40,420 nt of DNA from Cytophagales bacterium. Its GTDB lineage: Bacteria; Bacteroidota; Bacteroidia; Cytophagales; Thermoflexibacteraceae. Below, in pieces: positions 221 to 40,420 of this stretch. The notes under the pieces are model-generated. The model was not told the DNA's origin, did not search any database, and saw only the letters and a program-made list of their open reading frames with translations. The DNA is taken from the NCBI GenBank assembly GCA_013299115.1, contig JAAFKA010000039.1:1-40420 (forward strand), in the 5' to 3' direction. The translations under genes and the position numbers were made by a program. Numbering within the stretch: position 1 is the first letter of the stretch; each line of letters begins with the position of its first letter.

Positions 221-1654
221 TCAAATCCCGTATTTGTCTATCAAATAAACCAAAGCAGCCATGCCCGCAGCCCCCAATTTCAGTTCACGTTGGTTTACCT
301 TGTCAAATGTATCTTGGGTGGTGTGGTGCAGGTCAAAATAGCGTTGCGAATCGGGAACATAGCCTATCAGCGTAGTGCCTACTACTTTTAGCGGTGTAAT
401 ATCTACGCCAGCACCGCCTTTTTGGGCAAAATAAATGCCGTAAGGTTTGAGCAAGGGCAACCATTGGGCTACTGCCTGCACTTTGTCGGGTGTGGCATCT
501 ACATTAAAACCTCGTGGCGTAAAACCTCCTCTGTCCGACTCCAAAGCTGCCAAATGTTTTACCGAATTTTGTACTTGTTCAGCATATTGGCTATATGTAA
601 TTCCCCCACGATTGCCAAATTCCTCATTCATATACAAAATGACCCGAATGGTGCGGCGAGGGCGGATATTGAATTTTTTGAACAACTGCAAAACTTCTAC
701 GGCTTGCATACAACCTGCCCCGTCGTCATGGGCTCCTTGTGCCAAATCCCACGAGTCTAAGTGTCCACCAACTACAATGATTTCGTTTGGTTTTTCTGTT
801 CCCCTGATTTCTCCAATGACGTTGTGCGAAGTGGTGTCTGCTAATCGTTGGCAATTTGTTTGCATAAAAAACTGCAAAGTAGGGTCGGCTACCAACTGTT
901 TGCTCAACAACTCTGCACCGTTGGTGCTGATGGCTACGGCAGGTATTTGCCTCACATTGAGCTGATAAGTCATAGAACCTGTATGGGGCAAATCATCGAG
1001 GTTGGAGGCTAAAGAACGGACAACTACGCCCACAGCACCCAATTTGGCTGCTTCTGATGCTCCATTTCGGCGAGGTTTGCCAGCCTCCCCGTAGGCTTCG
1101 AAGGTGTCGAAGTAGGTAACATTGAGGGCTTGATTGAAAAATACAATTTTGCCTTTTATTTTTTCTTCGCCCAAAACTGCCAATTCCTCTATTTTTTTCA
1201 CTTCTATTACGCCAGCTTGCAAACCTTTTGCTCCTGTACCTACCGAGCCGCCCAACGCACAAATAGGAACAGCAATTTTGCCTTTTTTGCTTACCAAATG
1301 TGCTTTTTCTGCTTTGCCTCTTTTCCACTGTGGTACTTGCACAAGTTGCAACCAGACCGAATCTAACAACATAGAATCCAACAAAGATTTAGTCCAACGC
1401 ACTGCTTGTTCGGCTTGGGGTGTGGCAGTAAATCTTGCCCCTATTTTTGTGCAGAGGTAACGCAAATTTTCATAGCACTTGCCCTCCAACAAAGTTTGTT
1501 GGTAGAGTTGGCTGATGAACAACGAATCTTGCAAAAAAGGTAATGGATTGGTAGCAACAGTCACAATACCTGAATTTTCGGCTTGTTTAGTTGGTTGCTG
1601 GGCTTGGCAGGTGGCGAAAACTAACCAAGAGAGTAAGAAAAAAAGTTTTTTCAT
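221..1654 (-). CDS. Secreted M28-family zinc aminopeptidase/carboxypeptidase with PA domain
   Basis: Predicted exported metallopeptidase of 477 aa that removes amino acids from peptides in the periplasm or outside the cell. The start at 1654 is chosen because MKKLFFLLSWLVFATCQAQQ is a typical signal peptide; an upstream in-frame Met would add 14 residues that spoil it. Residues about 130-260 resemble a PA (protease-associated) insert. The M28 zinc site is complete: GGHLDS (His298), HDDG (Asp310), NEE (catalytic Glu344 and ligand Glu345), ESD (Asp374) and HH (His443/444). The order matches the carboxypeptidase Q/PGCP-like subgroup. It is a single gene, separated from queA by 282 bases holding palindromes. 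The exact substrate cannot be read from sequence. Confidence 0.9.
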   Translation of the reverse strand: MKKLFFLLSWLVFATCQAQQPTKQAENSGIVTVATNPLPFLQDSLFISQLYQQTLLEGKCYENLRYLCTKIGARFTATPQAEQAVRWTKSLLDSMLLDSVWLQLVQVPQWKRGKAEKAHLVSKKGKIAVPICALGGSVGTGAKGLQAGVIEVKKIEELAVLGEEKIKGKIVFFNQALNVTYFDTFEAYGEAGKPRRNGASEAAKLGAVGVVVRSLASNLDDLPHTGSMTYQLNVRQIPAVAISTNGAELLSKQLVADPTLQFFMQTNCQRLADTTSHNVIGEIRGTEKPNEIIVVGGHLDSWDLAQGAHDDGAGCMQAVEVLQLFKKFNIRPRRTIRVILYMNEEFGNRGGITYSQYAEQVQNSVKHLAALESDRGGFTPRGFNVDATPDKVQAVAQWLPLLKPYGIYFAQKGGAGVDITPLKVVGTTLIGYVPDSQRYFDLHHTTQDTFDKVNQRELKLGAAGMAALVYLIDKYGI

Positions 1655-1678
1655 ATAACAGAATGAGTACATTTTGAC

Positions 1679-1707
1679 GTAGTGCCACAGATGCAATGAA
1701 GTTGCAT
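1679..1707. repeat. GTAGTGCCACA repeat plus small palindrome
   Basis: GTAGTGCCACA at 1679-1689 recurs as both arms of the hairpin at 3277-3367 and, with two changes, at 32530-32546. It is followed by ATGCAA/TTGCAT arms at 1691-1707. It lies just upstream of the peptidase start and may fall in its leader. Confidence 0.4.
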
Positions 1708-1768
1708 AGCTAAGTAGTTAGACTTAAATAATCGACAGTGTTTTAATGTCTATGTATCTGATTATCAT

Positions 1769-1801
1769 AATTATCCGACACCTCAAAGGTGTTGGATAAT
1801 T
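1769..1801. repeat. Palindrome with 15-bp arms and CAA loop
   Basis: Left arm 1769-1783 and right arm 1787-1801 are complementary at 14 of 15 positions around a CAA loop. It lies between the divergent-side leader of the peptidase gene and the end of queA, both on the minus strand. It could terminate queA transcription or be a mobile palindromic repeat; no clear T-run follows on the minus strand. Confidence 0.55.
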
Positions 1802-1936
1802 GGGTTTAACTACTTATTTTTTACAAAGATAAGAAGCTAACAAAAAAACAGAGGTGATAAATATAATTTTTATCCTGAGCAAAGTTATCACAAAACCTGC
1901 ATTTCACAAGTTTTTAGTGTTTTATTGTTACAAACT

Positions 1937-3181
1937 TTAAGGCAACAACAAAGACGAATCTCCAAAACTCAAAAAACGGTAGTGATTAGCTAAGGCTTCT
2001 TGGTAAATTTTTCGCCAATCTTCGCCCACAAAAGCAGCTACCAAAAGCATCAGCGTAGTTTCGGGTTGGTGAAAATTAGTTATCAAGCCTGTGCAGCACT
2101 GAAAAACATAGCTGGGGACTATCATAATTTGCGTTTCGCCTGTGAGGTGGTTGAGTTGATGACTGTCCATAAAAGCAAGCAAATTTTGCATTACCTCTTG
2201 ACAAGTCGGCAGACCAGCAAAATCTTGTTCATAAGGTTGCAATTTGCTGATAAAAAAATAACCATTTTTCAGATTTTCTTTCACTGTTGGGTTGTTTTTC
2301 CACACCTCCAATGCCAACCAATACACACTTTCCAGAGTCCGCATAGAAGTAGTACCAACGGCACAAACCTTGCGTGCAGCCAATAAATTGCAAATATTTT
2401 CCCTCGATACAATGATTTGTTCGGTGTGCATGGCATGGGCAATGACATCTTCGGTGCGAATGGGCTGAAAAGTACCGCCACCTACGTGCAAAGTCAAAAA
2501 ATCCTCGACAATTCCCTTTGCTTGCAACCCCTCCAATACTTCGGGAGTAAAATGCAAACCCGCAGTAGGTGCAGCCACAGCCCCCTCATTTTTGGCGTAA
2601 ACAGTTTGGTAGTTTTGTTTGTCTTGGGCTACTACTTCTCTTTTTAGGTAAGGAGGCAAAGGCGTATTGCCAAAAGTTGCCAGCACTTCGGCAAAAGGTA
2701 AGTCGGCAGGAACCCACCGAAACTCTACCAACTGTTCTGCTCTGTCGGTTAAAGTTGCTTGCAAATGCCACGTTTGGTTGCCTGTTGGCGTATCTTTTTG
2801 CAAAGTTCTTTCCAAAATAATGCCCTCTTTCCATTTTTTCAACCCTCCAATGATGCACTTCCACACGCAATTTTGCGTCTGCAACATAGCCTGACTTACC
2901 ACAGCAGGTTGCACAGGATTGAGCAAAAAAATTTCTATTTCGCCACCACTTTCTTTCCTGAAATGCAGCCGAGCAGGAATAACCCTTGTGTTGTTGAAAA
3001 ACAGTGTGGTATCAGCTGTTAATTCCTCTCCAATGTGTTTAAATTGGCTATGTTTGATTTGCCCTTTTCTGTAAACCAACAAGTTAGACTCATCTCTTTT
3101 TTCCAAAGGAAAACGGGCTATCAACTCATCGGGCAAGTGATAATGAAATTGGCTGGCTGCAAGGTTTGGAAATTGATGCAT
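1937..3181 (-). CDS. queA: S-adenosylmethionine:tRNA ribosyltransferase-isomerase QueA
   Basis: Transfers and isomerises the ribosyl group of SAM onto preQ1 in the tRNA anticodon to give epoxyqueuosine, the penultimate step of queuosine synthesis, in the cytoplasm. The 414-aa protein carries the family hallmarks in order: FHYxLPxELIAxxPLxxRDxSxLLV at the N-terminus, NNTRVIPARL, the PTAGLHFT block, LHVGGGTFxPI, VGTTSxRTLES and NFHxPxxTLMLLVxAF near the C-terminus. The length is that of the longer Bacteroidota form rather than the roughly 350-aa proteobacterial form. The ATG at 3181 fits the start of the conserved N-terminus. No other queuosine gene is nearby. Confidence 0.96.
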   Translation of the reverse strand: MHQFPNLAASQFHYHLPDELIARFPLEKRDESNLLVYRKGQIKHSQFKHIGEELTADTTLFFNNTRVIPARLHFRKESGGEIEIFLLNPVQPAVVSQAMLQTQNCVWKCIIGGLKKWKEGIILERTLQKDTPTGNQTWHLQATLTDRAEQLVEFRWVPADLPFAEVLATFGNTPLPPYLKREVVAQDKQNYQTVYAKNEGAVAAPTAGLHFTPEVLEGLQAKGIVEDFLTLHVGGGTFQPIRTEDVIAHAMHTEQIIVSRENICNLLAARKVCAVGTTSMRTLESVYWLALEVWKNNPTVKENLKNGYFFISKLQPYEQDFAGLPTCQEVMQNLLAFMDSHQLNHLTGETQIMIVPSYVFQCCTGLITNFHQPETTLMLLVAAFVGEDWRKIYQEALANHYRFLSFGDSSLLLP

Positions 3182-3548
3182 GGTTTAATTCTTAATTCCA
3201 AGAAATAATAGCTATATTTTTCGGAAGCAATTTTGTGGAGAAAAATACTCTTTTACCTCTTACATAATGAAAATTTGGTAGTGCCACACAAGTAATGCTA
3301 CAAGTACGTTAGAACTAATATTTCTCAAAGAAATGTTAGTTCTGAGCATTACATCTGTGGCACTACCGAAAATTTATTAAAATTTCTCAAAGGTAAAAAA
3401 AAATTGAAAATCTTACAATTTTTTTTAGTTTGTAGCCTATTCTACACCCTTTTGCATTTTTTAACACCCTTCCTTTTCCAAAATCTCTTGTTTGTTGCGG
3501 TTTGTTTGCAAATTTGTTGTAATTTTAAGCCCGTTTTATGCAAACAAC
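3182..3548. other. Intergenic gap dominated by a long imperfect hairpin
   Basis: Between the divergently transcribed queA and VWA genes. It holds the 91-base hairpin at 3277-3367 and an A+T-rich stretch just before the VWA gene. TTTG-rich sequence at 3491-3519 followed by TAATTTTA at 3520 is a weak promoter candidate for the VWA gene. No small gene was seen. Confidence 0.5.
3277..3367. repeat. 91-base three-part imperfect hairpin
   Basis: The outer arms GGTAGTGCCACA (3277-3288) and TGTGGCACTACC (3356-3367) pair perfectly. Middle segments AGTAATGCT (3291-3299) and AGCATTAC (3345-3352) also pair. The core arms 3311-3325 and 3329-3343 pair at 14 of 15 positions around a CAA loop. The layered structure looks like a palindromic mobile repeat rather than a simple terminator. 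Confidence 0.65.
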
Positions 3549-5648
3549 ATGAACCAGCTACTTAGCGAATATTCATTTTCTTATCTTTTTTTGGGTGCAG
3601 GGCTGGCTTTGGGCTATGCTTGGTACTTATACAGGCAATCTTCTGCCACGCCTTGGAGCAAAACAACCAATTATTTGTTGGCTGCTTTGCGTTTTGTGGT
3701 GGTGTTTTTTATCTGTTTTTTGTTGCTCAATCCTTTTGTGAGGCAAATTGCCAATGAATACGAGAAACCTGTGGTGGTTTTTGCCGTTGATAATTCGCAA
3801 TCGGTGGCGTTGGGTGCAGACAGCCTGAAAAGAAAACAAGTAGCCAAAGATTTGCAACAATTAGCCACCGACCTCCAAGCCAAAGGATTTGAAACTACGA
3901 TACAAACTTTTGGGCAGTCAGCCGAGCAAAATTTGCAAGATTTTGGGGCTTTAACTTTCAATCATTTGCTAAGTCCTTTGGCGGAGTTGTTGCAAAACAT
4001 AGGGCAGAGTTATGAAAACCGCAATTTGGCTAACATTGTGCTGGTATCTGATGGCATTTACAATCAAGGCAATTCGCCACTCTACGGCAGTTACAAAGTG
4101 CCTGTGCATACCATCAGCATTGGCGACAGCACACCCAAAAAAGACATCATACTCAAAGCTATTTACCACAACGAATTGGCGTATTTGGGCAATAAATTTC
4201 CAATTAGCACCGAGTTGTATCAATCGGGGTTTGAAGGGCAGACCGTAGAGGTGCGACTAAAACAAAACGATAAGACCATTGAAACCAAAACCATTACTTT
4301 TGCAAAAAACCAAAGTTTTCAACGAATAGATTTTCTGCCTTTGGCTACCCAAAAAGGTATGCAGCACTACGTTATAGAGGTGCAAACTTTGGCGGGTGAG
4401 TTTACGACCCAAAACAACAGCCGTCATGCCTACATAGACATACTTGATGGCAAACAAAAGATTTTGCTCTTGGCAGCAGCCCCTCACCCCGACCTCAAAG
4501 CTATTCGGGCAGCCATAGAGAAAAAAGACAACTATACTTTACACCTTTTTATTCCTAATATTTCTCCCGAAGGAAGTTATTTGCCTAACGAAAAATACGA
4601 TTTGGTGATTATGCACAACTTACCAAATAGGCAAAATTTTGGTAGTGCTGTTTACCAAGAATTTGTGAATAAAAACATTCCAATTTGGTACATTGTGGGT
4701 ACAGAAACCAACTTGCCTGTACTCAACCGCCAGCTTGATTTTTTGAAAATTAACAGTAGAGGTATGCAATACGACAAGGTTACGCCTGCTTACCACGCCA
4801 ATTTTAACAAGTTTACCTTTGAGGAAAACAAAAAAAGCAAGTTCAAAAAATATCCACCTGCCACCACTTTTTTTGCCACTTACCAAGTAGGAGCAACAGC
4901 AGATGTAGTTCTCTATCAACAAGTTGGCAATGTGGTAACGCAAAATCCGCTGTTGCTTGTCAATGACAATCAGGGCAACAAAACAGGTGTATTGACAGCC
5001 GAAGGAATTTGGCAGTGGCGTATGCAAGAATTTACGCAAGACGAGTCGCAAGAGGCTTTTGATGATTTGATACAGAAAACAGTGCAGTATTTAGCAAACA
5101 AAGACGACAAACGCAAATTCAGAATAAAAACTTCGCCAACAGACGAAAACAATGGTGGCGTAACCATTTCGGCAGAAACCTATAACGATATTTACGAAAA
5201 TATTTATGGGCAAAAAATAGAATTGGAGGTCATAGACGAAAATAAAGTAGCAACCAACTACAATTTTACGAACACAACCACCAACTCAAACTATCGAATA
5301 AACGGACTGAAACAAGGAATCTACAAAGTGAGGGCAAGCATCACCATCAACAGCAAACGTGAAACTGCCCAAGCCGAATTTACTGTAACAGAACAGCAAA
5401 CCGAAGCCCTAAGCACCGTTGCCGATTTCGATATGCTTCGCCAGCTTGCCAAACAAACAGGAGGCATTGCAACCAACTACCAAAATTTGCAACCCTTGTC
5501 GGCTGTTTTGCAAGCCCAACCCGCCACTAACCTTATTCATTCGTCTGAAACTATCAAAGAATTGCTGCACCTCCATTGGTTGTTTTTCCTCCTGATGGGG
5601 CTGCTTGCTTTGGAGTGGTTTGTGCGGAAGTTTAGGGGGAGTTATTAA
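3549..5648 (+). CDS. Membrane-anchored VWA-domain protein
   Basis: A 699-aa inner-membrane protein with a likely periplasmic or cytoplasmic von Willebrand A domain. Start at 3549 (MNQLLSEYSF) gives two clean N-terminal membrane helices at about 10-27 and 42-61; an earlier in-frame start would only add a basic/hydrophobic run. The VWA metal site DNSQS (Asp81, Ser83, Ser85) follows the second helix, and LVSDG further on is the matching later strand. A long beta-rich middle region resembles Ig-like modules, and the last 28 residues contain a third helix (HLHWLFFLLMGLLALEWF). This architecture is common in Bacteroidota, often annotated only as VWA domain protein. The partner and function are unknown; it is alone on its strand until the R-M operon. 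Confidence 0.75.
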   Translation: MNQLLSEYSFSYLFLGAGLALGYAWYLYRQSSATPWSKTTNYLLAALRFVVVFFICFLLLNPFVRQIANEYEKPVVVFAVDNSQSVALGADSLKRKQVAKDLQQLATDLQAKGFETTIQTFGQSAEQNLQDFGALTFNHLLSPLAELLQNIGQSYENRNLANIVLVSDGIYNQGNSPLYGSYKVPVHTISIGDSTPKKDIILKAIYHNELAYLGNKFPISTELYQSGFEGQTVEVRLKQNDKTIETKTITFAKNQSFQRIDFLPLATQKGMQHYVIEVQTLAGEFTTQNNSRHAYIDILDGKQKILLLAAAPHPDLKAIRAAIEKKDNYTLHLFIPNISPEGSYLPNEKYDLVIMHNLPNRQNFGSAVYQEFVNKNIPIWYIVGTETNLPVLNRQLDFLKINSRGMQYDKVTPAYHANFNKFTFEENKKSKFKKYPPATTFFATYQVGATADVVLYQQVGNVVTQNPLLLVNDNQGNKTGVLTAEGIWQWRMQEFTQDESQEAFDDLIQKTVQYLANKDDKRKFRIKTSPTDENNGGVTISAETYNDIYENIYGQKIELEVIDENKVATNYNFTNTTTNSNYRINGLKQGIYKVRASITINSKRETAQAEFTVTEQQTEALSTVADFDMLRQLAKQTGGIATNYQNLQPLSAVLQAQPATNLIHSSETIKELLHLHWLFFLLMGLLALEWFVRKFRGSY

Positions 5649-5654
5649 GGTGTG

Positions 5655-5676
5655 TTTCGGTTTTGAGAAACCGAAA
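5655..5676. repeat. 22-bp palindrome, left flank of the R-M operon
   Basis: TTTCGGTTT and AAACCGAAA arms around TGAG, 6 bases after the VWA stop codon. It is the exact reverse complement, loop included, of the 22 bases at 8018-8039 on the other side of the R-M operon. It may also serve as the VWA terminator. Confidence 0.7.
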
Positions 5677-5708
5677 GTAATGTAGTGTATGCGTTATGTG
5701 TATGGTAA

Positions 5709-5737
5709 GTGCTTTTGTTGCTCACAACCAAAAGTAA
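5709..5737. repeat. Second palindrome of the GGTTkCTCAmAACC family
   Basis: The arms pair around GCTCAC. The core GTTGCTCACAACC is shared exactly with 39685-39714 and resembles the palindromes at 5655 and 8018. It lies in the leader region of the methyltransferase gene. Confidence 0.55.
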
Positions 5738-5774
5738 ATAGTAAAAATAAATGTATTTAATACTTAAAAAAGTA

Positions 5775-5782
5775 TAACTTTG
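5775..5782 (+). promoter_or_regulatory. Candidate -7 box for the R-M operon
   Basis: TAACTTTG matches the Bacteroidota -7 consensus TAnnTTTG exactly and lies 14 bases before the methyltransferase ATG, implying a very short leader. No good TTTG -33 element is seen at the usual distance, so the call rests on the -7 box. Confidence 0.4.
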
Positions 5783-5796
5783 CAAAAAAAGCCACA

Positions 5797-7089
5797 ATGG
5801 AAGCAATCATAGAATTAGAGAAAATACAAACTAATCATTCTTGGAGTTTTACAGATTATTCAGTAAAAGATACTTCATATATTACACATAATTACTACAC
5901 TTATCCTGCTAAGTTTATTCCTCAATTAGCAAGTCGTCTAATTTTGGAACATAGTCAAAAAGGAGATGTAGTAATAGACCCTTTTATGGGTAGTGGTACA
6001 ACTATAATAGAAAGCCTAGTAAATGAAAGAATTGGAATAGGTACAGATATAAATGAAATTGCTTGTTTGGTGGCACAAACAAAAACAACCCCTATTCTTT
6101 CAAAAGAATTGGTTACGGAGTTTTTGAAATTGGAAACAGAATTAAAAATTAGTATGAATGGAAAAAAAGATTTTTACTTGACACAAGTTTTTGAAAAATT
6201 TAATTTTCACGAAAGGATAGATTATTGGTATAAACCTCAACAAAAGGCTGACTTAGCTATTTTACTTTTTAAAATTTTAAGTATTGAAAATCAGGTAATT
6301 AAAGATTTTTTCTTAGTGGCTTTTTGTCAAATTCTTAAAACTTGTTCTATTTGGCTACAAAAAAGTATCAAACCTACCAGAGATTTAAAGAAAAAGGATT
6401 ATGAAATTGTGCCTACTTTTTTGCAACAAGCAAAAAAGATGATTAAAAAAAATGAGAGTTTTTATAAATTATTGCCTAAAAATGTTGTAGAAAATATTGC
6501 AAATCACAGAACTGTTGTGTGCCAAGATGCTCGCAAATTACCCTGCGAAACAGCAAAAGCTAACTTAATTGTAACAAGTCCGCCTTATGTTACAAGCTAC
6601 GAATATGCTGATTTACACCAACTTCCACTGTATTGGTTAGGTCATTTAAACGAATTAACGCAGTTTCGCAAAAAATTTATAGGTTCTTCGCACACGCAAA
6701 GAGAAATTATAGATTTGCACAGCAACTTAGCCACTGAAATTGTAAATCAGTTAGGTAATAATAAAAAAGGTCGTGAAGTGCGAAATTATTTTGCAGATAT
6801 GTATGAAACTTTTAGAGAAATGCACAGAGTGTTGCAACCAAAAGGCAAGGCTTGTATAGTAATTGGCAATACACAATTTCAAGGAGTAGCCATTAAAAAT
6901 GCAGAAGTTTTTATAGAACAAATGCAAATGATTGGTTTTCAGGTTTTTGATATTATCAAGAGGGAAATCCCCTCTAAGATGTTACCTTCTACACGAGATA
7001 GCAATACAGGGCAGTTTGCTAAAATAACAGAAGCTAATTTAACATTGGCTTATCCAACTGAATACATTTTAATTATGCAGAAATTATGA
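5797..7089 (+). CDS. DNA methyltransferase of an R-M system (probable N4-cytosine type)
   Basis: A 430-aa SAM-dependent DNA methyltransferase that should protect host sites from the endonuclease two genes downstream. SAM-binding motif I is DPFMGSGTT (61-69). Catalytic motif IV is TSPPY (260-264), the serine form typical of N4-cytosine enzymes. About 190 residues, presumably the target recognition region, separate them, so the order is motif I, recognition domain, motif IV. Before motif I lies HNYYTYPAKFIPQ (31-43), a segment seen in a subgroup of these enzymes. The stop overlaps the next start (ATGA at 7086-7089), indicating translational coupling. The gene is visibly more A+T-rich than its neighbours, consistent with transfer. 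N6-adenine specificity cannot be excluded. Confidence 0.88.
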   Translation: MEAIIELEKIQTNHSWSFTDYSVKDTSYITHNYYTYPAKFIPQLASRLILEHSQKGDVVIDPFMGSGTTIIESLVNERIGIGTDINEIACLVAQTKTTPILSKELVTEFLKLETELKISMNGKKDFYLTQVFEKFNFHERIDYWYKPQQKADLAILLFKILSIENQVIKDFFLVAFCQILKTCSIWLQKSIKPTRDLKKKDYEIVPTFLQQAKKMIKKNESFYKLLPKNVVENIANHRTVVCQDARKLPCETAKANLIVTSPPYVTSYEYADLHQLPLYWLGHLNELTQFRKKFIGSSHTQREIIDLHSNLATEIVNQLGNNKKGREVRNYFADMYETFREMHRVLQPKGKACIVIGNTQFQGVAIKNAEVFIEQMQMIGFQVFDIIKREIPSKMLPSTRDSNTGQFAKITEANLTLAYPTEYILIMQKL

Positions 7090-7316
7090 TAAAAATAGAA
7101 GATGAATGGGCTTTTATTACATACGAAGTTCACCACAACAAACCCAAAACTACACCCTACAAAGGGAATGATTTGCTAACTCGTGAATTGTTGTTTATGC
7201 TACAGGCTTTGCTTTCTACCTACAACAGAGATAAATCAGAGTTTAATCTTATGATTTATCAACTATCAAAAAAACAATATCTTAAACTAATTTCTCAAAA
7301 AAATGACAATCAATGA
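7086..7316 (+). CDS. Small protein of unknown function inside the R-M operon
   Basis: A 76-aa protein that I do not recognise. Its start overlaps the methyltransferase stop by 4 bases and its end overlaps the endonuclease start by 14 bases, so it is almost certainly translated as part of the operon. The N-terminus is mixed (EDEWAFITYEVHHNKPKTTPYKGND), followed by a Leu-rich helix (LLTRELLFMLQALL) and a basic C-terminus. No helix-turn-helix like that of C-proteins is evident, and no membrane segment. Candidate roles are a subunit or modulator of either enzyme, but nothing in the sequence decides this. Confidence 0.65.
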   Translation: MIKIEDEWAFITYEVHHNKPKTTPYKGNDLLTRELLFMLQALLSTYNRDKSEFNLMIYQLSKKQYLKLISQKNDNQ

Positions 7317-8013
7317 CCTTATTACAATATATGAAAGTAAAAAAGTCCAGTACGGTAAAAATGCGTATAAACATATTTCTAATTTACTTTCAGAGGCAAA
7401 AGAACAACATAAAATAGATTTTTTGCAAAGTGATGTGGCAAAAAAAGCCCGCAAGGAAAATAGAGAGCCAGACCATGAACAATCTTGGCGTGCTTTCAAA
7501 GGCAAAAACTTGGAAAAACTTATTGAGTACATCATCACTGACGAGATTCAAAAATTAGGTTTAAAGGTTATCAACGGCAATTCTTTGGAAAGAACCGAAG
7601 GTAAAAACCTTTCTGAAGAACTAAGCAAAGTGAAACGCAATTTGTTAGTAGATTATGGCGAATATGGTTGTCACTTGCCCGATGTAGATTTGATAATTTA
7701 TGAACCGCAAACCTCCAAAATTATTGCAGTTTTATCAAGCAAAGTTACCTTGCGAGAAAGAATAGCCCAAACAGGTTACTGGAAACTAAAATTGGTAGCT
7801 GATAAAATTACCAAACACATAAAAGTTTACTTTATCACACCCGACGAAGATGGAACTTTGACTGTAAAACAACCTACCAAAAAAGGCAGGGCTATTGTGG
7901 AAACAGATACAGACGGTTGCTATGTTTTGAGTGAAACTAATGTAGAGGAGAGCAACAAGGTAAAAATGTTTGACAAATTTATTCCAGATTTGAAAAAATT
8001 GATAGGGCAATAG
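7303..8013 (+). CDS. Type II restriction endonuclease, BsaWI/CCGG-family-like
   Basis: A 236-aa protein predicted to cut unmethylated DNA at the site protected by the upstream methyltransferase. A helical N-terminal part contains SWRAFKGKNLEKLI (61-74), resembling the N-terminal domain of BsaWI-type enzymes. The PD-(D/E)XK core is visible as PDVD (126-129) and SSKVTLRER (145-153), Lys147 being the catalytic Lys. The RER following it matches the (R/K)(D/E)R module that I recall CCGG- and CCWGG-cutting enzymes (NgoMIV, Bse634I, EcoRII) using to read C:G pairs. A target containing CCGG or a related core is therefore inferred, not shown. The start ATG at 7303 overlaps the small upstream gene. Third gene of the operon. 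Confidence 0.75.
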   Translation: MTINDLITIYESKKVQYGKNAYKHISNLLSEAKEQHKIDFLQSDVAKKARKENREPDHEQSWRAFKGKNLEKLIEYIITDEIQKLGLKVINGNSLERTEGKNLSEELSKVKRNLLVDYGEYGCHLPDVDLIIYEPQTSKIIAVLSSKVTLRERIAQTGYWKLKLVADKITKHIKVYFITPDEDGTLTVKQPTKKGRAIVETDTDGCYVLSETNVEESNKVKMFDKFIPDLKKLIGQ

Positions 8014-8017
8014 CTGC

Positions 8018-8039
8018 TTTCGGTTTCTCAAAACCGAAA
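8018..8039. repeat. 22-bp palindrome, right flank of the R-M operon
   Basis: It begins 4 bases after the endonuclease stop and is the exact inverted copy of 5655-5676. It could act as the operon's terminator hairpin, but lacks a T-run. Confidence 0.7.
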
Positions 8040-8074
8040 TAGGAGTTTCTCACCCTCCCTGAAAAGTGCTATAA

Positions 8075-8119
8075 CAGGGTTTTAAGAAACCCTGCTTTGA
8101 GATTTGAGAATCTCAAAGC
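8075..8119. repeat. Two adjoining palindromes
   Basis: CAGGGTTT-TAAG-AAACCCTG (8075-8094) is immediately followed by arms GCTTTGAGATT and AATCTCAAAGC around TGAG (8094-8119), sharing one base. Both are perfect. They resemble the GGTTT/AAACC palindromes flanking the R-M operon and lie in the leader region of the OstA-like gene. Confidence 0.65.
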
Positions 8120-8189
8120 ACGCAACATTGTCATTTGCGTTGCAAAATACTTGTGTTGCAAAATAAAAAAAATTTAATAGTAGTAACTA

Positions 8190-10199
8190 ATGCAAAAAAA
8201 CTTAGAAAATATTGTTTTTCATCATAAATTTTACTCCATTTTATTGGTATTATTTATGGTAATTTTCAACTTTGTTGGCTTTGCCCAAAACGGCAAAAAG
8301 ACAGGTATTTCTGTTGTGCCAGAGGAAAAACCGACTCCCGTTGAGTTGTTGCAGGCAGGCAAACTGCAAGGCGACAGACTGAATGGCGAGGATATTCGCA
8401 TAGTAGTCAAAGATTCGCTAATTCCCAATGTTGTCTTTCGCCAAAATGGTTCTTACCTTTATTGCGACTCAGCTTTGCAATTTTTGGCACAAAACAAACT
8501 CAATGCCTACCGAAATGTGCGAATAGTCGACTCTGATGGCACAAACATTACTGCCGATTCCTTGCTCTATGACGGCAACACACGCATAGCACGCCTGCGA
8601 GGGAGTGTGGTACTCACAGACGAAGACCAAACAGTTTATACTTGTTGTATGGATTATAACATGAACACAAAAGTTGGTTCTTACTTCAATGGTGGTACTG
8701 TCATAAGCAAACAAAACACAGTGGAAAGTGAAAAAGGCTATTACTACACCACAACCAAAATGGTTTATTTTCGGGACAAAGTAGCCTATTCCAGCCCCGA
8801 AACTTCTTTGCAATCTGATACACTGACCTATAACGTAAGGGCTAAACAAGTGCTTTTTAATGCCAAAACTTACATTAAGACCAAAGAGGGGCAAGTGGTA
8901 ACAGACAAGGGCAAATATTTTACAGAAAGTGGCAAAACAGAGTTTACAGGCAGGTCTAAGATAGATACCGAAGACTACACCATTAGCGGTGATGTATTGG
9001 ATTATAACAAAAAAACAGGCAAAGGATTGGCAAAAGGCAACGTAGAGTTTTTTGGCAAGAAAGACAACATCATTATTTTGGGAGATTTGGGCAAACACGA
9101 TGGCAGCAAAAAAAGGTCGGAGATTTATGGCAATGCAGTGATGATAAAGCCCATAGAAGACAAAAAAGTTTCCCGCAAAAACAGAGATACCTTGTTTCTT
9201 TCGGCAGATACCCTAATTTCTATTAACGATACCACAAGCAAAAACCGCCGTTTGCTTGCCTATAACCACGTGAAAATGTACCGCAATATTTTTCAGGCAA
9301 AATGCGACTCCTTAGTCTATAATTTGGTGGATTCTATCATTTACTTCAATTACAATCCGATTTTGTGGGCAAATAACTCCCAAATGACTGCCGACTCTAT
9401 CTATATCAAGTTGAAAGACAACCAGATAGACAAAATGAATATGGAAGTCAAGGCTTTTATTATTTCGCAAGACACCATAAAAAACTTTAATCAAGTGAAG
9501 GGGCGAAAGATTTTGGCAAACTTCAAGAACAACAACCTCAACAAGATAGACGTAAATGGCAATGCCGAAAGTATTTTTCACGTCTTAGAAAAAGATACGC
9601 TGATGATGGGTTTGAACTTTATTAAATCTTCTGAAATGTTTTTGTTTTTCAACGATTCGAGCAAGCTGCACGAAATCTTGTTTTTGAAAGAACCCGAAGG
9701 CAAATTTATTCCTCCTCACGAAGTCAATACAGAAAGTAGTCGTTTGCGAGATTTTAATTGGCGAAGTGCCGAAAAGCCCGAAAAAGGCGAAGTATTGGGA
9801 ATTCACAACAAAAACCGTTTTAGAAGTGGCGAATTGGCAAATGCCCTGATGATTGTAGATGACCAGTACAAGGTGTTTTTGAAAAATAACAAGCTGTTTT
9901 TCTACAAAGGAGATGCCGAAAAACGGGACATCATGCCCAAAATTTATATCAAAGCCTATCCGATAGACAAAAATGACCTGCCAATAGAAAAACGCAAGGA
10001 AGGTTATGAGGAATTATCTTTTGAGATTCCAGAGGAAAACCTCACAGGCACAGTAGCCAAATACGACATCAATTTGCCCGACTTTAAACTCAAAAAGTTG
10101 GTTATTTACCAAAAAAGCACCACCAGAGGGCAACTTTGGCAAAAAAACTATGACTATCCGCTGAAAAGGGAAGTGAAGAAAGCAAAAAAAGGAGTTTAG
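8190..10199 (+). CDS. OstA-like outer-membrane biogenesis protein (LptA/LptD N-terminal type)
   Basis: A 669-aa exported protein with repeated beta-strand units of the OstA/LptA jellyroll type, expected to bind or carry lipopolysaccharide between the membranes. A hydrophobic segment at about 13-32 ending in FAQ is the signal peptide. Units such as ADSLLYDGNTRIARLRGSVVL, ESEKGYYYTTTKMVYFRDKV and SGDVLDYNKKTGKGLAKGNVEF recur through residues 60-400, the pattern of OstA-like_N proteins common in Bacteroidota. The C-terminal part is charged and less typical. It stands alone here; no lptB, lptC or full lptD is adjacent. The role in LPS transport is inferred from the family. Confidence 0.8.
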   Translation: MQKNLENIVFHHKFYSILLVLFMVIFNFVGFAQNGKKTGISVVPEEKPTPVELLQAGKLQGDRLNGEDIRIVVKDSLIPNVVFRQNGSYLYCDSALQFLAQNKLNAYRNVRIVDSDGTNITADSLLYDGNTRIARLRGSVVLTDEDQTVYTCCMDYNMNTKVGSYFNGGTVISKQNTVESEKGYYYTTTKMVYFRDKVAYSSPETSLQSDTLTYNVRAKQVLFNAKTYIKTKEGQVVTDKGKYFTESGKTEFTGRSKIDTEDYTISGDVLDYNKKTGKGLAKGNVEFFGKKDNIIILGDLGKHDGSKKRSEIYGNAVMIKPIEDKKVSRKNRDTLFLSADTLISINDTTSKNRRLLAYNHVKMYRNIFQAKCDSLVYNLVDSIIYFNYNPILWANNSQMTADSIYIKLKDNQIDKMNMEVKAFIISQDTIKNFNQVKGRKILANFKNNNLNKIDVNGNAESIFHVLEKDTLMMGLNFIKSSEMFLFFNDSSKLHEILFLKEPEGKFIPPHEVNTESSRLRDFNWRSAEKPEKGEVLGIHNKNRFRSGELANALMIVDDQYKVFLKNNKLFFYKGDAEKRDIMPKIYIKAYPIDKNDLPIEKRKEGYEELSFEIPEENLTGTVAKYDINLPDFKLKKLVIYQKSTTRGQLWQKNYDYPLKREVKKAKKGV

Positions 10200-12080: not shown

Positions 12081-12203
12081 AACCTATAAGTTTTAAAAAC
12101 CTTAGTAGGTTTAGTTAATAGTCAACCTTGTAAGGTTTTAAAAACCTTACAAGGTTTTGTGGATATTCAACCTTGTAAGGTTTTTAAAACCTTACAAGGT
12201 TTT
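12081..12203. repeat. Three tandem CCTTGTAAGG/CCTTACAAGG palindromes
   Basis: Units at 12124-12158 and 12169-12203 (start-to-start 45 bases) are nearly identical perfect-arm palindromes: CCTTGTAAGGTTTT followed by AAAACCTTACAAGG. A degenerate third copy lies at about 12081-12113. They fill the gap between the TolC-like gene and the ATPase gene and end 46 bases before its ATG. Confidence 0.75.
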
Positions 12204-36298: not shown

Positions 36299-38761
36299 AT
36301 GACCAAATACCAATTTTATTTTCTTTTTTTTCTCTTGACTAACCTTTTTGGGGTTTGTAGCTTGGGTTTTGCCCAAAACACAGATAGTTTGTTGCAAGTG
36401 GCAAGGACAGAAAAAAGTAAGAAAAACTTTGCTCCTGCCCTGCGTAATTACTTGCAAGTGATGAAGTTATGGGAAAAAGAACAGGCTACCAAAACTGGTG
36501 TTGCCAACAAAAAATTAGCACCTTTGTATGTGGAGATTGGGCAAATTTATGAGCAGAGCAAACTGCACGACAACGCCATTGCCTACTTCAAAAAAGCCAA
36601 TGCCTTAGACGAACAAGCCAATACTAATGAGCTGATTGCCAATGAATTGCTAAACTCTAATAAAAACAAAGAAGCCTTAGAGTCTTATCAAAAAGCATTG
36701 GCTGTGTATCAAAAACACAACGACTATGCAGCCATTATTCGCAATTTATCGCAATTAATGACTTGCTACCAAAACCTGAACCAATACGACAAAGCCCTCG
36801 AAACAGGTACAGAAATAGTAACTCGTGCCAGACAGGTAAACGATAGCAAAACCGAAATGATAGCCCTCAATAATTTGGGCTACGTCTATCGTTATTTGCG
36901 AAATTACAGCAAGGCTTTCGAAACTCTGAACAAGGTGCTTGCCCTCAAATTTTCTTTGCAAACTTCTCCCCAAGAAAAAATAATTACTTTGACTAATTTG
37001 GGTGTGGTTTCACAAAATTTGGGCAACTATACCAATGCTTTGGAGTATTTGTTACAGGCTTTGCAGTTGGCAGAAAAGCAAAAACTGAAACCAGAAATTT
37101 GCAAGTTGCAAGACCTCATAGCCGTAGTTTACCTGAATAATAAGGACATTTACAATGCCGAATCTTCCAATGATTTCTCAATAGACCTTGCCGAAAAACT
37201 GAAAGATGCCGAACTGTTGCAAGAAGTTTACAAGACCAAATCCGATATTTTACAGGCAAAGGAGGACTACCAAGAGGCGTTGAATTTTTATAAAAAGCAC
37301 CTCAACCTCAGAGATTCGCTGACCTTAGCCCAGACCATAGCCCAGCAGGAATTGTTGCAACAGCAATTTGCCGTTGAGAGAGATGAAAAAAACACCTTGG
37401 ATGCCATTTCTAACGAGGAGGCACGCAAAGCTGCTTTGCAACAACTTCAAAACGAGGTGGAAAAACAAAAATTGGCAATAGAAAAGCAAAAAGAAACCCA
37501 ACGTGCCGATGCCGAAAGAGCCAAAGCTGCCGAAGAAAAACAGATAGCCAATCAAGAAATAGCTGAAAGAGAACTTAAAATTTTGAAACAACAAAACGAG
37601 GCGGAGCAAAGAGAAAGGCAATTTTTGGCTTTGGAAAAGGAGAAAGCTGTGCAAGCCTTAGAGTTGGAAAAACAAAAAGCACAAGAAAAAGAAACCCAAC
37701 GCCAAGTTACGCAACTGAAACAAGACAAAGAAATTCAGGATTTGCGGGTGCAACAGCAAGCCTTAGCTACTGAAAAACAGGCAAGAGAAACCCGACTGTT
37801 GTATGCTATTTTGGCTGCTGTTTTGTTGCTCATTGTTATTGGTATCATAGCTTACTTCAATATTCGCAAGAAAAACAGCCAATTAGCCCAGCAAAAAAAC
37901 GAAATTGAGCTAAAAAATGTGGAGTTAGAACAAACCCAAGAAGAAATTAAAGCCCAACGCGATGCCCTCGAAGTCAAAAAAGAGGAATTGAATTATGCTT
38001 ACAATAACATCAAAGCAAGTATTACCTACGCCAAACGGATTCAGGCTGCTATTTTGCCTCCGCTGCCTAATATACAGGTCTATTTGCCTGAAATTTTTAT
38101 CTTGTTCAAACCACGCGACATTGTGAGTGGAGATTTTTATTGGTTTGCCCCTACTTCTGAAACGTCTTGCGTGTTGGCAGCTGTAGATTGTACGGGCCAT
38201 GGCGTGCCTGGGGCTTTTATGAGTATGATTGGCGACTCTTTGCTCAATCAAATCGTAATAGAAAACCATATCACTTCGCCTGATTTGATTTTGGCAGCCC
38301 TCAACAAAGGCATTAAAAACTCCCTCCGCAAAGGAGAACAAGACGCAAAAGATGGTATGGATATGGCTATCTGTTGGGTGGACAAAGCCCAGCAACTGAT
38401 AGAATGGGCAGGGGCAATGAACCCCGCCTGTGTGGTGCAAAATGGCGAATTGCGTGAAATAAAAGCAGATAAAAAACCAATAGGAGATGTGGACACCGAA
38501 GGTTTTTGTTTTACCAAACATATTATTAGTTGCGAAGTGCCAACGACAGTTTATTTGTATTCAGACGGCTACCAAGACCAATTTGGTGGGGCAGAAGGCA
38601 GAAAATTTATGATTCGCCGTTTCAGAAACCTCCTTGCCGATATTCATACGCACCCGATGCCCACGCAAAAGGAAATTTTGGAAGACACTCTTGCCAACTG
38701 GTTAGGCACGACACACACCCAAATTGACGATATTTTGGTAATTGGTTTTAGATTAGGATAA
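36299..38761 (+). CDS. TPR / coiled-coil / SpoIIE-type protein phosphatase
   Basis: An 820-aa membrane signalling protein. A signal peptide ends near FAQ (about 26), so the TPR region (about 30-350, at least six repeats such as YVEIGQIYEQSKLHDNAIAYFKKA) is periplasmic. A long charged coiled coil (about 350-495, many EKQK and EERE runs) leads to one membrane helix (about 499-520), a second coiled coil (about 530-565), and a cytoplasmic SpoIIE/PP2C-type Ser/Thr phosphatase domain (about 575-820). The metal-binding aspartates are present: GDFYWF (Asp612), AAVDCTGHG (Asp630) and IDD (Asp810/811). Such proteins usually act in anti-sigma/anti-anti-sigma partner switching, but no such partner gene is adjacent. 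The start ATG 36299 fits the signal peptide. Confidence 0.93.
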   Translation: MTKYQFYFLFFLLTNLFGVCSLGFAQNTDSLLQVARTEKSKKNFAPALRNYLQVMKLWEKEQATKTGVANKKLAPLYVEIGQIYEQSKLHDNAIAYFKKANALDEQANTNELIANELLNSNKNKEALESYQKALAVYQKHNDYAAIIRNLSQLMTCYQNLNQYDKALETGTEIVTRARQVNDSKTEMIALNNLGYVYRYLRNYSKAFETLNKVLALKFSLQTSPQEKIITLTNLGVVSQNLGNYTNALEYLLQALQLAEKQKLKPEICKLQDLIAVVYLNNKDIYNAESSNDFSIDLAEKLKDAELLQEVYKTKSDILQAKEDYQEALNFYKKHLNLRDSLTLAQTIAQQELLQQQFAVERDEKNTLDAISNEEARKAALQQLQNEVEKQKLAIEKQKETQRADAERAKAAEEKQIANQEIAERELKILKQQNEAEQRERQFLALEKEKAVQALELEKQKAQEKETQRQVTQLKQDKEIQDLRVQQQALATEKQARETRLLYAILAAVLLLIVIGIIAYFNIRKKNSQLAQQKNEIELKNVELEQTQEEIKAQRDALEVKKEELNYAYNNIKASITYAKRIQAAILPPLPNIQVYLPEIFILFKPRDIVSGDFYWFAPTSETSCVLAAVDCTGHGVPGAFMSMIGDSLLNQIVIENHITSPDLILAALNKGIKNSLRKGEQDAKDGMDMAICWVDKAQQLIEWAGAMNPACVVQNGELREIKADKKPIGDVDTEGFCFTKHIISCEVPTTVYLYSDGYQDQFGGAEGRKFMIRRFRNLLADIHTHPMPTQKEILEDTLANWLGTTHTQIDDILVIGFRLG

Positions 38762-38866: not shown

Positions 38867-39575
38867 AAATGCAAACAAAACCAACTTACGAACCAGCCAC
38901 ACACCGAGCAAGCAGTCATTTTTATTCGTTTTTCGCCTACTCCTGAATTGATTAGGTGGGTAAAAAATCTAACAGGTGTGCGGTGGAGTCAAAGCCAAAA
39001 AGCATGGTATGTGTTGGACACTGCCTAAAAAACCGTCTATTTTGCCCAAAGTGATAGACACGAAAGACATTAAGAAACTGTTTGCAGTTACAGCCAATTT
39101 GAAACACAACACGATGCTCAAGCTTTGCTACGGAATGGGTTTGCGGGTGAGTGAAATAGTAAACCTAAAAATAACGGACATAGACAGCCAAAGAATGCAG
39201 GTTTTGGTGGAACAAAGTAAAGGCAAGAAAGACAGATATATAAACCTACCCCAAAGTATTTTGGAACAGTTGCGAGCATACTACAAACAATAAAAACCCA
39301 AAAAATATTTATTTGAGGGTCTAATTGGCGAAAAATATAGCATACGCAGTTGCCAAAAAGTATTTCAGGAATCAATGCAAAAAGCCAAAATCAACAAAAC
39401 TATTGGTATTCATGGACTTCGCCACAGTTTTGCTACACATTTACTTGAAAATGGTACAGATGTAAAGTTTATTCAAGAATTGCTGGGACACAACGACATC
39501 AAAACCACTTTGCGTTATACACACGTGAGCAAGAAAAACTTAGCAGCCATAAAAAGCCCCTTAGACAGCCTGTAA
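38867..39575 (+). pseudogene. Decayed tyrosine recombinase/integrase (frameshift, stop, internal deletion)
   Basis: Pieces of one XerC/phage-integrase-type gene survive in order. First, TEQAVIFIRFSPTPELIRWVKNLTGVRWSQSQKAWYV (to 39028), the small N-terminal region of Bacteroidota integrases. Then, in another frame, LPKVIDTKDIKKLF, GMGLRVSEI (catalytic Arg) and GKKDRYINLP (catalytic Lys). An in-frame TAA at 39291-39293 replaces a codon in what is normally YYKxYKPKxxLFEG; the same frame continues with [12 protein letters not shown] (His, Arg), [11 protein letters not shown] (His) and the Tyr nucleophile in RYTHVS, ending at 39575. The roughly 100-residue core-binding domain expected between the first two pieces is absent. 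The gene is not functional as read. Confidence 0.85.
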
Positions 39576-39677
39576 CCTGTAGTGCGGACTTCAGTCCGCA
39601 TATTTTTGTAGCATAGGCTTCTCCTGTAGTGCGGACTTCAGTCCGCACATTTTTGTAGCATAGGCTTTAGCCTGTGC
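39576..39677. repeat. Tandem 47-base unit of two palindromes
   Basis: Unit 1 (39576-39620) and unit 2 (39623-39667) agree at 44 of 45 positions. Each holds TGCGGACTTCAGTCCGCA followed by TGTAGCATAGGCTT; the last copy completes to TAGGCTTTAGCCTGTGC (to 39677). It begins immediately after the recombinase stop codon. Confidence 0.8.
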
Positions 39678-39684
39678 ATTTTAT

Positions 39685-39714
39685 GTGCTTGCGGTTGCTC
39701 ACAACCGCAAGTAA
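39685..39714. repeat. GCGGTTGCTCACAACCGC palindrome before ssb
   Basis: Perfect arms CTTGCGGTTG and CAACCGCAAG around CTCA. The core matches the palindrome at 5709-5737, near the R-M operon. It ends 21 bases before the ssb start. Confidence 0.65.
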
Positions 39715-39735: not shown

Positions 39736-40071
39736 ATGAAAGGACTAAACAAAGTTACCCTCATTGGCAATGTGGGCAACGAACCCGAAATAAAAACTTT
39801 GGCAAACGACATAAAAGTAGCCAAATTTAGCCTTGCCACCACCGAAAGCTACAAAGACCCACAAGGGCAAACTCACGCAGAAACCGAATGGCATAGCGTT
39901 GTGTTGTGGCGAAATTTGGCTGATTTGACCGAAAAATATATACACAAAGGCAGTTTGCTCTATGTGGAGGGCAAACTCAAAACCCGCAGCTACGAAGATG
40001 AGCAGGGCAAAAAACGGTATGTTACGGAAATTATAGCCGAACAAATCTTGTTTCTGGACAAAAAACTGTAG
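39736..40071 (+). CDS. ssb: Short single-stranded DNA-binding protein
   Basis: A 111-aa SSB with a single OB fold: NKVTLIGNVGNEPEIKTLANDIKVAKFSLATTESY, TEWHSVVLWRNLADLTEKYIHKGSLLYVEGKLKTRSYED and the RYVTEIIAEQILFL end strand are typical. It stops right after the OB fold, without the flexible linker and acidic DDDIPF-type tail that recruits partner proteins in full-length SSBs. Short tail-less SSBs are known as accessory or mobile-element paralogs, so this may not be the main chromosomal SSB. It lies next to a recombinase remnant. Confidence 0.92.
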   Translation: MKGLNKVTLIGNVGNEPEIKTLANDIKVAKFSLATTESYKDPQGQTHAETEWHSVVLWRNLADLTEKYIHKGSLLYVEGKLKTRSYEDEQGKKRYVTEIIAEQILFLDKKL

Positions 40072-40089: not shown

Positions 40090-40114
40090 CGAATGTAGCA
40101 TTGGTGTTTATCAA

Positions 40115-40178
40115 GTACGCATTTTGTATTGTTTTCAGCCTAATTTACAACTTACAAGGTGCGTATTTTGTATTGTTT
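40115..40178 (+). repeat. Two 20-base direct repeats upstream of the terminal gene
   Basis: 40115-40134 (GTACGCATTTTGTATTGTTT) and 40159-40178 agree at 18 of 20 positions, 44 bases apart. Their starts (GTACGCAT, GTGCGTAT) resemble the arms of the palindrome at 40268-40287, suggesting several binding sites for one regulator. Confidence 0.5.
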
Positions 40179-40231: not shown

Positions 40232-40263
40232 TTTGTTTTTTAGAAATTGAGTTTTTATATTTG
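40232..40263 (+). promoter_or_regulatory. Promoter of the gene entering at 40335
   Basis: TTTG ending at 40235 and TATATTTG (40256-40263) are 20 bases apart, a strong match to the Bacteroidota -33 TTTG / -7 TAnnTTTG layout. Transcription would start near 40270. Confidence 0.55.
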
Positions 40264-40267
40264 GAAA

Positions 40268-40287
40268 ATATACGCAGGTGCGTATAT
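40268..40287. promoter_or_regulatory. Palindromic operator candidate at the predicted transcription start
   Basis: ATATACGC-AGGT-GCGTATAT is perfect over 8-bp arms and covers the predicted start point. AGGTGCGTAT recurs at 40157-40166. Position and symmetry fit a dimeric repressor site. Confidence 0.45.
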
Positions 40288-40334
40288 TAGATAGTTGCCT
40301 GCCATTTTAGAAACAACCATATAACCAAACAACA

Positions 40335-40420
40335 ATGCAAACCAACAGAATTACCTCAATACTCGAAAATTATTGCGAAATACAAAATCCTGAAAAAACA
40401 GGACTTTTGTTGCTCGACTT
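40335..40420 (+). CDS. 5' end of a gene cut by the window edge
   Basis: ATG 40335 opens a frame to the window end, about 28 codons: it begins MQTNRITSILENYCEI and ends with KTGLLLLD. The hydrophobic TGLLLLD run is of the kind that leads into a Walker A loop in DEAD/DEAH-type helicases, but the loop itself would lie beyond the edge, so no function is assigned. The start is supported by the promoter and palindrome upstream. Confidence 0.6.
   Translation, partial: MQTNRITSILENYCEIQNPEKTGLLLLD

What the first reader, a model, noticed from the sequence alone, without database searches (positions are those of the whole stretch)
40232..40420. Promoter plus TSS-centred palindrome driving a gene cut by the window
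TTTG-N20-TATATTTG is among the best Bacteroidota promoter matches in the window. A perfect palindrome (ATATACGC-AGGT-GCGTATAT) covers the predicted start point, and two 20-base direct repeats with related half-sites (GTACGCAT, GTGCGTAT) lie 90-150 bases upstream. This looks like a tightly repressed, cooperatively regulated operon. It follows a tail-less ssb and a dead recombinase, as accessory or defence loci often do, and the protein begins with a helicase-like lead-in.
Basis: partly seen in the sequence, partly recalled or inferred. Interest (0 to 1): 0.6.

Follow-up and report, generated by a model that had tools for sequence, protein, structure and literature searches.

The report
Plasmid-defence gene start, operator-like promoter
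The gene cut off at the edge is most likely the start of a known type of anti-plasmid defence gene (ddmD) in a Bacteroidota bacterium, and its promoter carries a perfect palindrome that may be a repressor site, which matters mildly because how such systems are switched on is not settled.

Summary
The sequence features are real. A Bacteroidota-type promoter (40232-40263), a perfect 22-nt palindrome (40267-40288) and two related direct repeats (40113-40134, 40157-40178) precede an ATG at 40335. Palindrome and repeats are each about a 0.5% event in shuffled local sequence; the palindrome is single-copy in the 5.5-Mb genome. The gene is cut because the assembled contig ends there. A second 5' end (87% identical DNA) on contig C62 reads on for 236 codons; with its relatives (Thermoflexibacter ruber, a Flexibacter MAG, cyanobacteria) it identifies the gene as ddmD, the helicase-nuclease of the DdmDE plasmid-elimination system. 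A ddmE lies at the start of contig C74. So the guess of a helicase-led defence operon is right. Tight cooperative repression is plausible but unproven: no regulator gene was found beside it, the palindrome is not enriched in 38 other genomes, and the C62 copy has a dispersed REP-like hairpin at the same place instead. A new member of a known system with an unusual promoter.

The parts
40335..40420 (+). 5' end of ddmD (28 complete codons), ends at the contig end before the Walker A motif
   Evidence: 96% identical over 28 aa to the C62 copy, 78% over 23 aa to T. ruber, E=4.1e-4; the C62 copy is 72% identical to the T. ruber protein, which matches solved DdmD 9ix4, E=3.6e-36
40232..40263 (+). 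Bacteroidota-type promoter TTTG-N20-TATATTTG
   Evidence: consensus recalled, not from a call
40267..40288 (+). perfect palindrome AATATACGCA-GG-TGCGTATATT, candidate operator over the predicted start point; as RNA a 9-bp hairpin
   Evidence: only perfect copy in the genome
40113..40134 (+). upstream repeat 1, half-site GTACGCAT
40157..40178 (+). upstream repeat 2, half-site GTGCGTAT
40290..40334 (+). 5' leader shared with the C62 ddmD copy (87% over 40290-40420)
39736..40071 (+). short ssb without acidic C-terminal tail
38976..39575 (+). tyrosine recombinase pseudogene (two pieces, stop between)
39582..39711 (+). run of palindromic repeats before ssb, three of them terminator-like; 39687-39711 is of the same family as the hairpin before the C62 ddmD copy

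Best explanation
The cut gene is ddmD, first gene of a ddmDE plasmid-elimination operon: DdmE, a DNA-guided Argonaute-like protein, finds plasmid DNA and recruits DdmD, which moves along it and leads to its cleavage (mechanism from the V. cholerae system). It is transcribed from its own promoter at 40232-40263. The 22-nt palindrome just downstream of the -7 element acts as an operator at the start point, and the two upstream repeats as auxiliary sites for the same unlinked repressor. Shown: gene family (through the C62 copy and relatives), a ddmE in the same genome, promoter-like sequence, palindrome, repeats. Inferred: that this ddmD is intact and runs into the C74 ddmE, the start point, and repressor binding.
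For: ddmD: 96% to C62 over 28 aa; C62 71-72% to T. ruber; T. ruber protein to DdmD 9ix4, 3.6e-36, and to five further sequences at about 5e-25, some from entries that also hold DdmE; C62 fragment to 9ix4, 7.8e-6; PADLOC DdmD: T. ruber 6.3e-23, Flexibacter MAG 1.6e-51. ddmE: C74:453-2150, E=6.9e-66 with a profile of second genes from cyanobacteria; profiles to solved DdmE, 3.5e-22 and 2.8e-29. Operator; the degenerate 21-nt motif, which was built from these three sites, has only 3 other hits in the genome at up to two mismatches, backwards control 0.
Against: Only 28 codons of this copy exist, stopping before Walker A; alone they match the Flexibacter protein weakly (E=0.032). The C62 fragment by itself gets PADLOC matches to Cas3 helicase models (9e-4, 6e-3), not DdmD. 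The C74 ddmE alone has no PADLOC or convincing Pfam match and by single-sequence search matches 9iw3 at 1.9e-8 but V. cholerae DdmE only at 0.3-0.4. The C62 copy has neither palindrome nor repeats. No conservation of the palindrome, no adjacent regulator found. The genome is full of intergenic palindromes and the shuffle tests were made after the site was pointed out.
Confidence: 0.55

Rival explanations
1. The cut gene is ddmD, but the palindrome works in RNA: a hairpin at the 5' end of the message that stabilises it or tunes translation, with no repressor.
For: The 27-nt stretch folds to -10.1 kcal/mol with a 9-bp stem; the C62 copy also has a hairpin at nearly the same distance from the start codon (39 versus 46 nt), of unrelated sequence, and its leader is unusually stable (z=-3.28).
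Against: The 75-nt C33 leader as a whole is not unusually stable (z=-1.33, 21 of 200 shuffles as good). The C62 hairpin belongs to a dispersed family of 79 sites, so its position may be chance. It does not explain the upstream repeats.
Confidence: 0.2
2. The cut gene is ddmD and the palindrome and repeats are neutral: leftovers of local duplication or of mobile DNA around the gene.
For: Window rich in palindromes (6 observed, 0.73 expected); recombinase remnant and palindromic repeats close by; no conservation.
Against: One perfect copy in the genome, so not a member of a dispersed family. Position over the predicted start point and half-sites shared with two upstream repeats are not expected of debris.
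Confidence: 0.22
3. The C33 gene is a partial duplicate of ddmD, not a working operon; the working copy is the one on C62 followed by C74. (Compatible with any of the readings of the palindrome.)
For: Two ddmD 5' ends but only one ddmE 3' part in the assembly; C33 ends after 28 codons.
Against: Of the two copies only C33 has a promoter match upstream; assembly gaps may account for the missing parts. Synteny in G001, G006 and G009 did not settle which contig joins C74.
Confidence: 0.3

Closest known systems
DdmDE (Vibrio cholerae VPI-2; solved DdmD 9ix4 and DdmE 9iw3)
   Same: DdmD-type helicase; in 8 cyanobacterial loci a ddmE-like gene overlaps the ddmD stop; a ddmE is present in this genome
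   Different: Distant from the V. cholerae proteins; the V. cholerae operon has a WYL/HTH gene (VC1772) upstream with a suspected regulatory role (PMC12409362, passages seen); none was found beside this gene
Bacteroidetes LexA-like SOS operators (CTAA-N5-TTAG, GGA-N5-TCC; PMC8565304, passages seen)
   Same: Palindromic sites in promoters, two or more in some promoters
   Different: Neither motif is in ATATACGCA-NN-TGCGTATAT
REP-like dispersed palindromes of this genome
   Same: Perfect palindromes of similar size; one sits before the C62 ddmD copy
   Different: The 40267-40288 palindrome is single-copy, with another sequence and a 2-nt centre

Membership tests
DdmDE | DdmD: helicase of the DdmD family | tested here: met
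   Through the close paralog and relatives. The C33 piece is only 28 aa, and the C62 fragment alone hits PADLOC Cas3 models rather than DdmD.
DdmDE | Walker A motif | tested here: met
   DLPTGFGKT in the C62 copy; the C33 piece stops just before it
DdmDE | C-terminal nuclease domain of DdmD | tested here: inconclusive
   Absent from the assembly of this genome. The Flexibacter MAG protein aligns to PADLOC DdmD 239-1175 of 1190; Pfam gave no nuclease match. In T. ruber a similar C-terminal piece lies on another contig (by eye)
DdmDE | ddmE next to ddmD | tested here: inconclusive
   ddmE at the start of C74, 5' end missing; adjacency to C33 or C62 not shown. Of 12 loci: 7 have a 702-768-aa gene overlapping the ddmD stop, 1 the start of a ddmE before the contig end, T. 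ruber has ddmE on another contig, 3 (Firmicutes-type MAGs) show no such overlapping gene among ORFs of 90 aa or more
DdmDE | Eliminates plasmids | not testable with these tools
   needs an experiment
Repressor operator | Two-fold symmetric site overlapping promoter or start point | tested here: met
   start point predicted, not mapped
Repressor operator | Conserved in orthologous promoters | tested here: not met
Repressor operator | Cognate regulator | tested here: inconclusive
   none seen among neighbours; an unlinked one was not searched for and cannot be excluded
REP-like repeat | Many copies in the genome | tested here: not met
   one perfect copy against 79 sites at up to 1 mismatch for the family before the C62 copy

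The most novel reading that the evidence does not exclude
A ddmDE operon in Bacteroidota is held silent by an unlinked repressor that binds a start-point palindrome and two upstream auxiliary sites cooperatively, so that an anti-plasmid Argonaute system is switched on only when needed; a second ddmD copy without these sites shows an alternative, read-through mode.
Probability: 0.25. Interest if true: 0.5.

Novelty: new member of a known kind. Interest (0 to 1): 0.35.

Why it matters
DdmDE removes plasmids, and its control is open: the review whose passages I saw says that a WYL/HTH gene next to the V. cholerae operon is being investigated as a possible regulator (PMC12409362). A ddmD promoter with a defined candidate operator gives a testable handle. 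The subfamily looks rare among relatives: 2 of 59 genomes, the window's own and T. ruber, and 1 of 395 genomes of the phylum, again the window's own, at E<=1e-15 with at most 2 candidates scored per genome in the rows shown.

Tried and rejected
Reading beyond the edge: impossible, contig C33 ends at 40420. Dispersed repeat as source of the palindrome: rejected. The looser pattern has 21 sites against 8 for the backwards control, but only the window's is exact, and 9 of the 21 have a CTTTAG or CTAAAG centre and look like another dispersed repeat. Intrinsic terminator: rejected, the palindrome is not among the 4 terminator-like sites. Rfam: 3 matches, all far below gathering score. SOS operator: motif differs. 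Joining C33 or C62 to C74 by synteny in G001, G006, G009: no result (the G001 contig ends soon after the SpoIIE gene). sigma-70 scan: 2 sites where 2.2 are expected. In one search five of 17 start positions were off by one to three bases, which hardly changes the 300-nt regions. The 21-nt motif was chosen after seeing the repeats. Of its three two-mismatch sites elsewhere, one (C16) is inside a 679-codon frame; two (C23, C45) are in or near gaps between frames, about 60 and 30 bases before the next start codon, so weak further sites of one regulator are possible; not followed up. NCBIfam gave no match above cut-off for the T. ruber genes or the C62 fragment.

Full report
What is there. The window is the complete contig C33 (40420 bases) of a 74-contig, 5.5-Mb genome. 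The nearest named relative met here is Thermoflexibacter ruber: G006 contig C60 is 9751 bases long, as is NZ_FONY01000076.1, which is 100% identical over the query. TTTG-N20-TATATTTG at 40232-40263 is one of 4 such matches where 0.86 are expected. The palindrome spans 40267-40288 with 10-nt arms around GG. Repeats at 40113-40134 and 40157-40178 match over 18 of 21 positions, and the right palindrome arm with its 3' flank is a third, weaker copy.

Is it more than chance? In local first-order shuffles a palindrome as good appears in 0.5% of 3000, and a direct repeat as good in 6 of 1000. Genome-wide, a degenerate 21-nt motif built from the three sites has only 3 further hits, at two mismatches; the backwards control has none. 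One of these three is inside a long frame; two lie in or near gaps shortly before a start codon. The perfect palindrome occurs once in the genome. Against this, the window has 6 perfect palindromes where 0.73 are expected, and the site was chosen before it was tested.

What the gene is. The 28 codons on C33 are 96% identical to the start of a gene on contig C62; the DNA is 87% identical over 131 bases including the leader. The C62 copy runs 236 codons to its own contig end, holds the Walker A motif DLPTGFGKT, passes the Pfam cut-off for ResIII narrowly and matches solved DdmD 9ix4 at 7.8e-6; in PADLOC it matches Cas3 helicase models weakly and not DdmD. The T. ruber relative (72% identical to it) matches 9ix4 at 3.6e-36 and five further solved sequences at about 5e-25; these are deposited as 'Helicase/UvrB N-terminal domain-containing protein', and three of their entries (8u3k, 9bgk, 9ezy) also hold DdmE. 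PADLOC calls it DdmD (6.3e-23) with a weaker Cas3c match. A Flexibacter MAG (L033) has a longer form matching the PADLOC DdmD model from 239 to 1175 of 1190, with the start of a ddmE-like gene behind it. Seven cyanobacterial loci and a Nostoc plasmid have a ddmD-like gene with a 702-768-aa second gene that overlaps its stop by 1 or 4 bases. A profile of these eight second genes matches solved DdmE at 3.5e-22, though none of those tested has a PADLOC match.

The partner gene. That profile finds one ddmE in the window's genome, at C74:453-2150. The frame is open from base 3 to 2153 and lacks about 50 residues at its start by comparison with T. ruber, whose ddmE is 63% identical. A gene that looks like malate dehydrogenase follows (by eye). 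Alone, the C74 protein matches solved DdmE 9iw3 at 1.9e-8 and V. cholerae DdmE at 0.3-0.4; a profile that includes it matches 9iw3 at 2.8e-29 and the V. cholerae sequences at about 4e-11. So the genome has two ddmD starts and one ddmE end, and the stretch between is missing from the assembly. Which ddmD start belongs to the ddmE is not known; synteny did not help.

How the promoter may work. A palindrome at the predicted start point with two half-site repeats roughly 90 to 155 bases upstream is the layout of a repressed promoter with auxiliary operators. This is inference from geometry. No regulator was seen beside it: upstream are a TPR/SpoIIE gene, a broken recombinase and a tail-less ssb. 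With up to 2 mismatches the palindrome is absent from the 12 other same-family genomes searched, and the 38 other genomes together give 5 sites where the backwards control gives 4. Of 17 upstream regions of ddmD-like genes, 3 have a perfect palindrome with arms of at least 8: the window, C62 and L043, each different. The C62 palindrome belongs to a family with 79 sites at up to one mismatch of a pattern with four free positions, 41 of them without mismatch, control 0. That copy lies 80 bases behind a PD-(D/E)XK-like gene and may be read together with it. A hairpin role in RNA remains possible.

Comparison with the known. The gene is filed under DdmDE by homology; nuclease domain and adjacency could not be tested in this genome. 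In V. cholerae a WYL/HTH gene upstream of ddmDE is suspected to regulate it (PMC12409362, passages seen). Bacteroidetes LexA-like operators have other motifs (PMC8565304, passages seen). A library search for papers holding both DdmDE and Bacteroid- gave 2, neither on Bacteroidota DdmDE by title and start of abstract (listing only); two DdmDE structure or mechanism papers that I looked for are not held, so nothing is claimed about what they report. The finding is a new member of a known kind; the operator is the only potentially new part.

Noticed in passing
L026 (T. ruber NZ_FONY01000076) 955-9424: In T. ruber ddmD follows four genes that look like an Mks/Wadjet condensin module (955-3645 SMC-like, 3638-4447, 4444-5715, 5712-6242). 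Only MksE (5712-6242, 3.5e-21) passes its Pfam cut-off; JetD_C is below it, and PADLOC gave no Wadjet match. If real, two anti-plasmid systems lie side by side.
   Followed up: partly
L026 9425-9751 and L077 1-671: T. ruber ddmD ends before its nuclease part at what looks, by eye, like an insertion sequence (no Pfam match to the 89-aa frame that follows); a nuclease-like piece and a 739-aa ddmE lie at the start of another contig.
   Followed up: partly
L020 (C62) 4871-6589 and 6620-7702: Two tandem genes, by eye nearly identical over long stretches, the second cut by the contig end; the first is AAA-ATPase_like plus PDDEXK_9.
   Followed up: no
window 39687-39711; 79 sites genome-wide: REP-like palindrome GCTTTCGGTTTCTCAAAACCGAAAG and variants with matching changes in both arms (GCTTGCGG../..CCGCAAG), some in short clusters.
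   Followed up: partly
window 12124-12156 and 12169-12201; L056 about 2395-2430: Another palindromic repeat (AACCTTGTAAGGTT...AACCTTACAAGGTT), twice in the window and a similar one behind ddmE on C74.
   Followed up: no
window 36299-38761: TPR plus SpoIIE-phosphatase protein of a very large family: 36 to 49 matches at E<=1e-60 in each of 6 relatives.
   Followed up: no
L026 6263-6373: Long imperfect inverted repeat between MksE and ddmD of T. ruber, resembling a cassette recombination site by eye only.
   Followed up: no
L039, L040, L043: Firmicutes-type MAGs with a full-length ddmD-like gene but no ~700-aa gene overlapping its stop; not searched by profile.
   Followed up: no
G000 sites with CTTTAG/CTAAAG centre, e.g. 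L013: Nine of the 21 sites share a CATACGC-TTTA-GCGTATG-like palindrome, probably another dispersed repeat.
   Followed up: no
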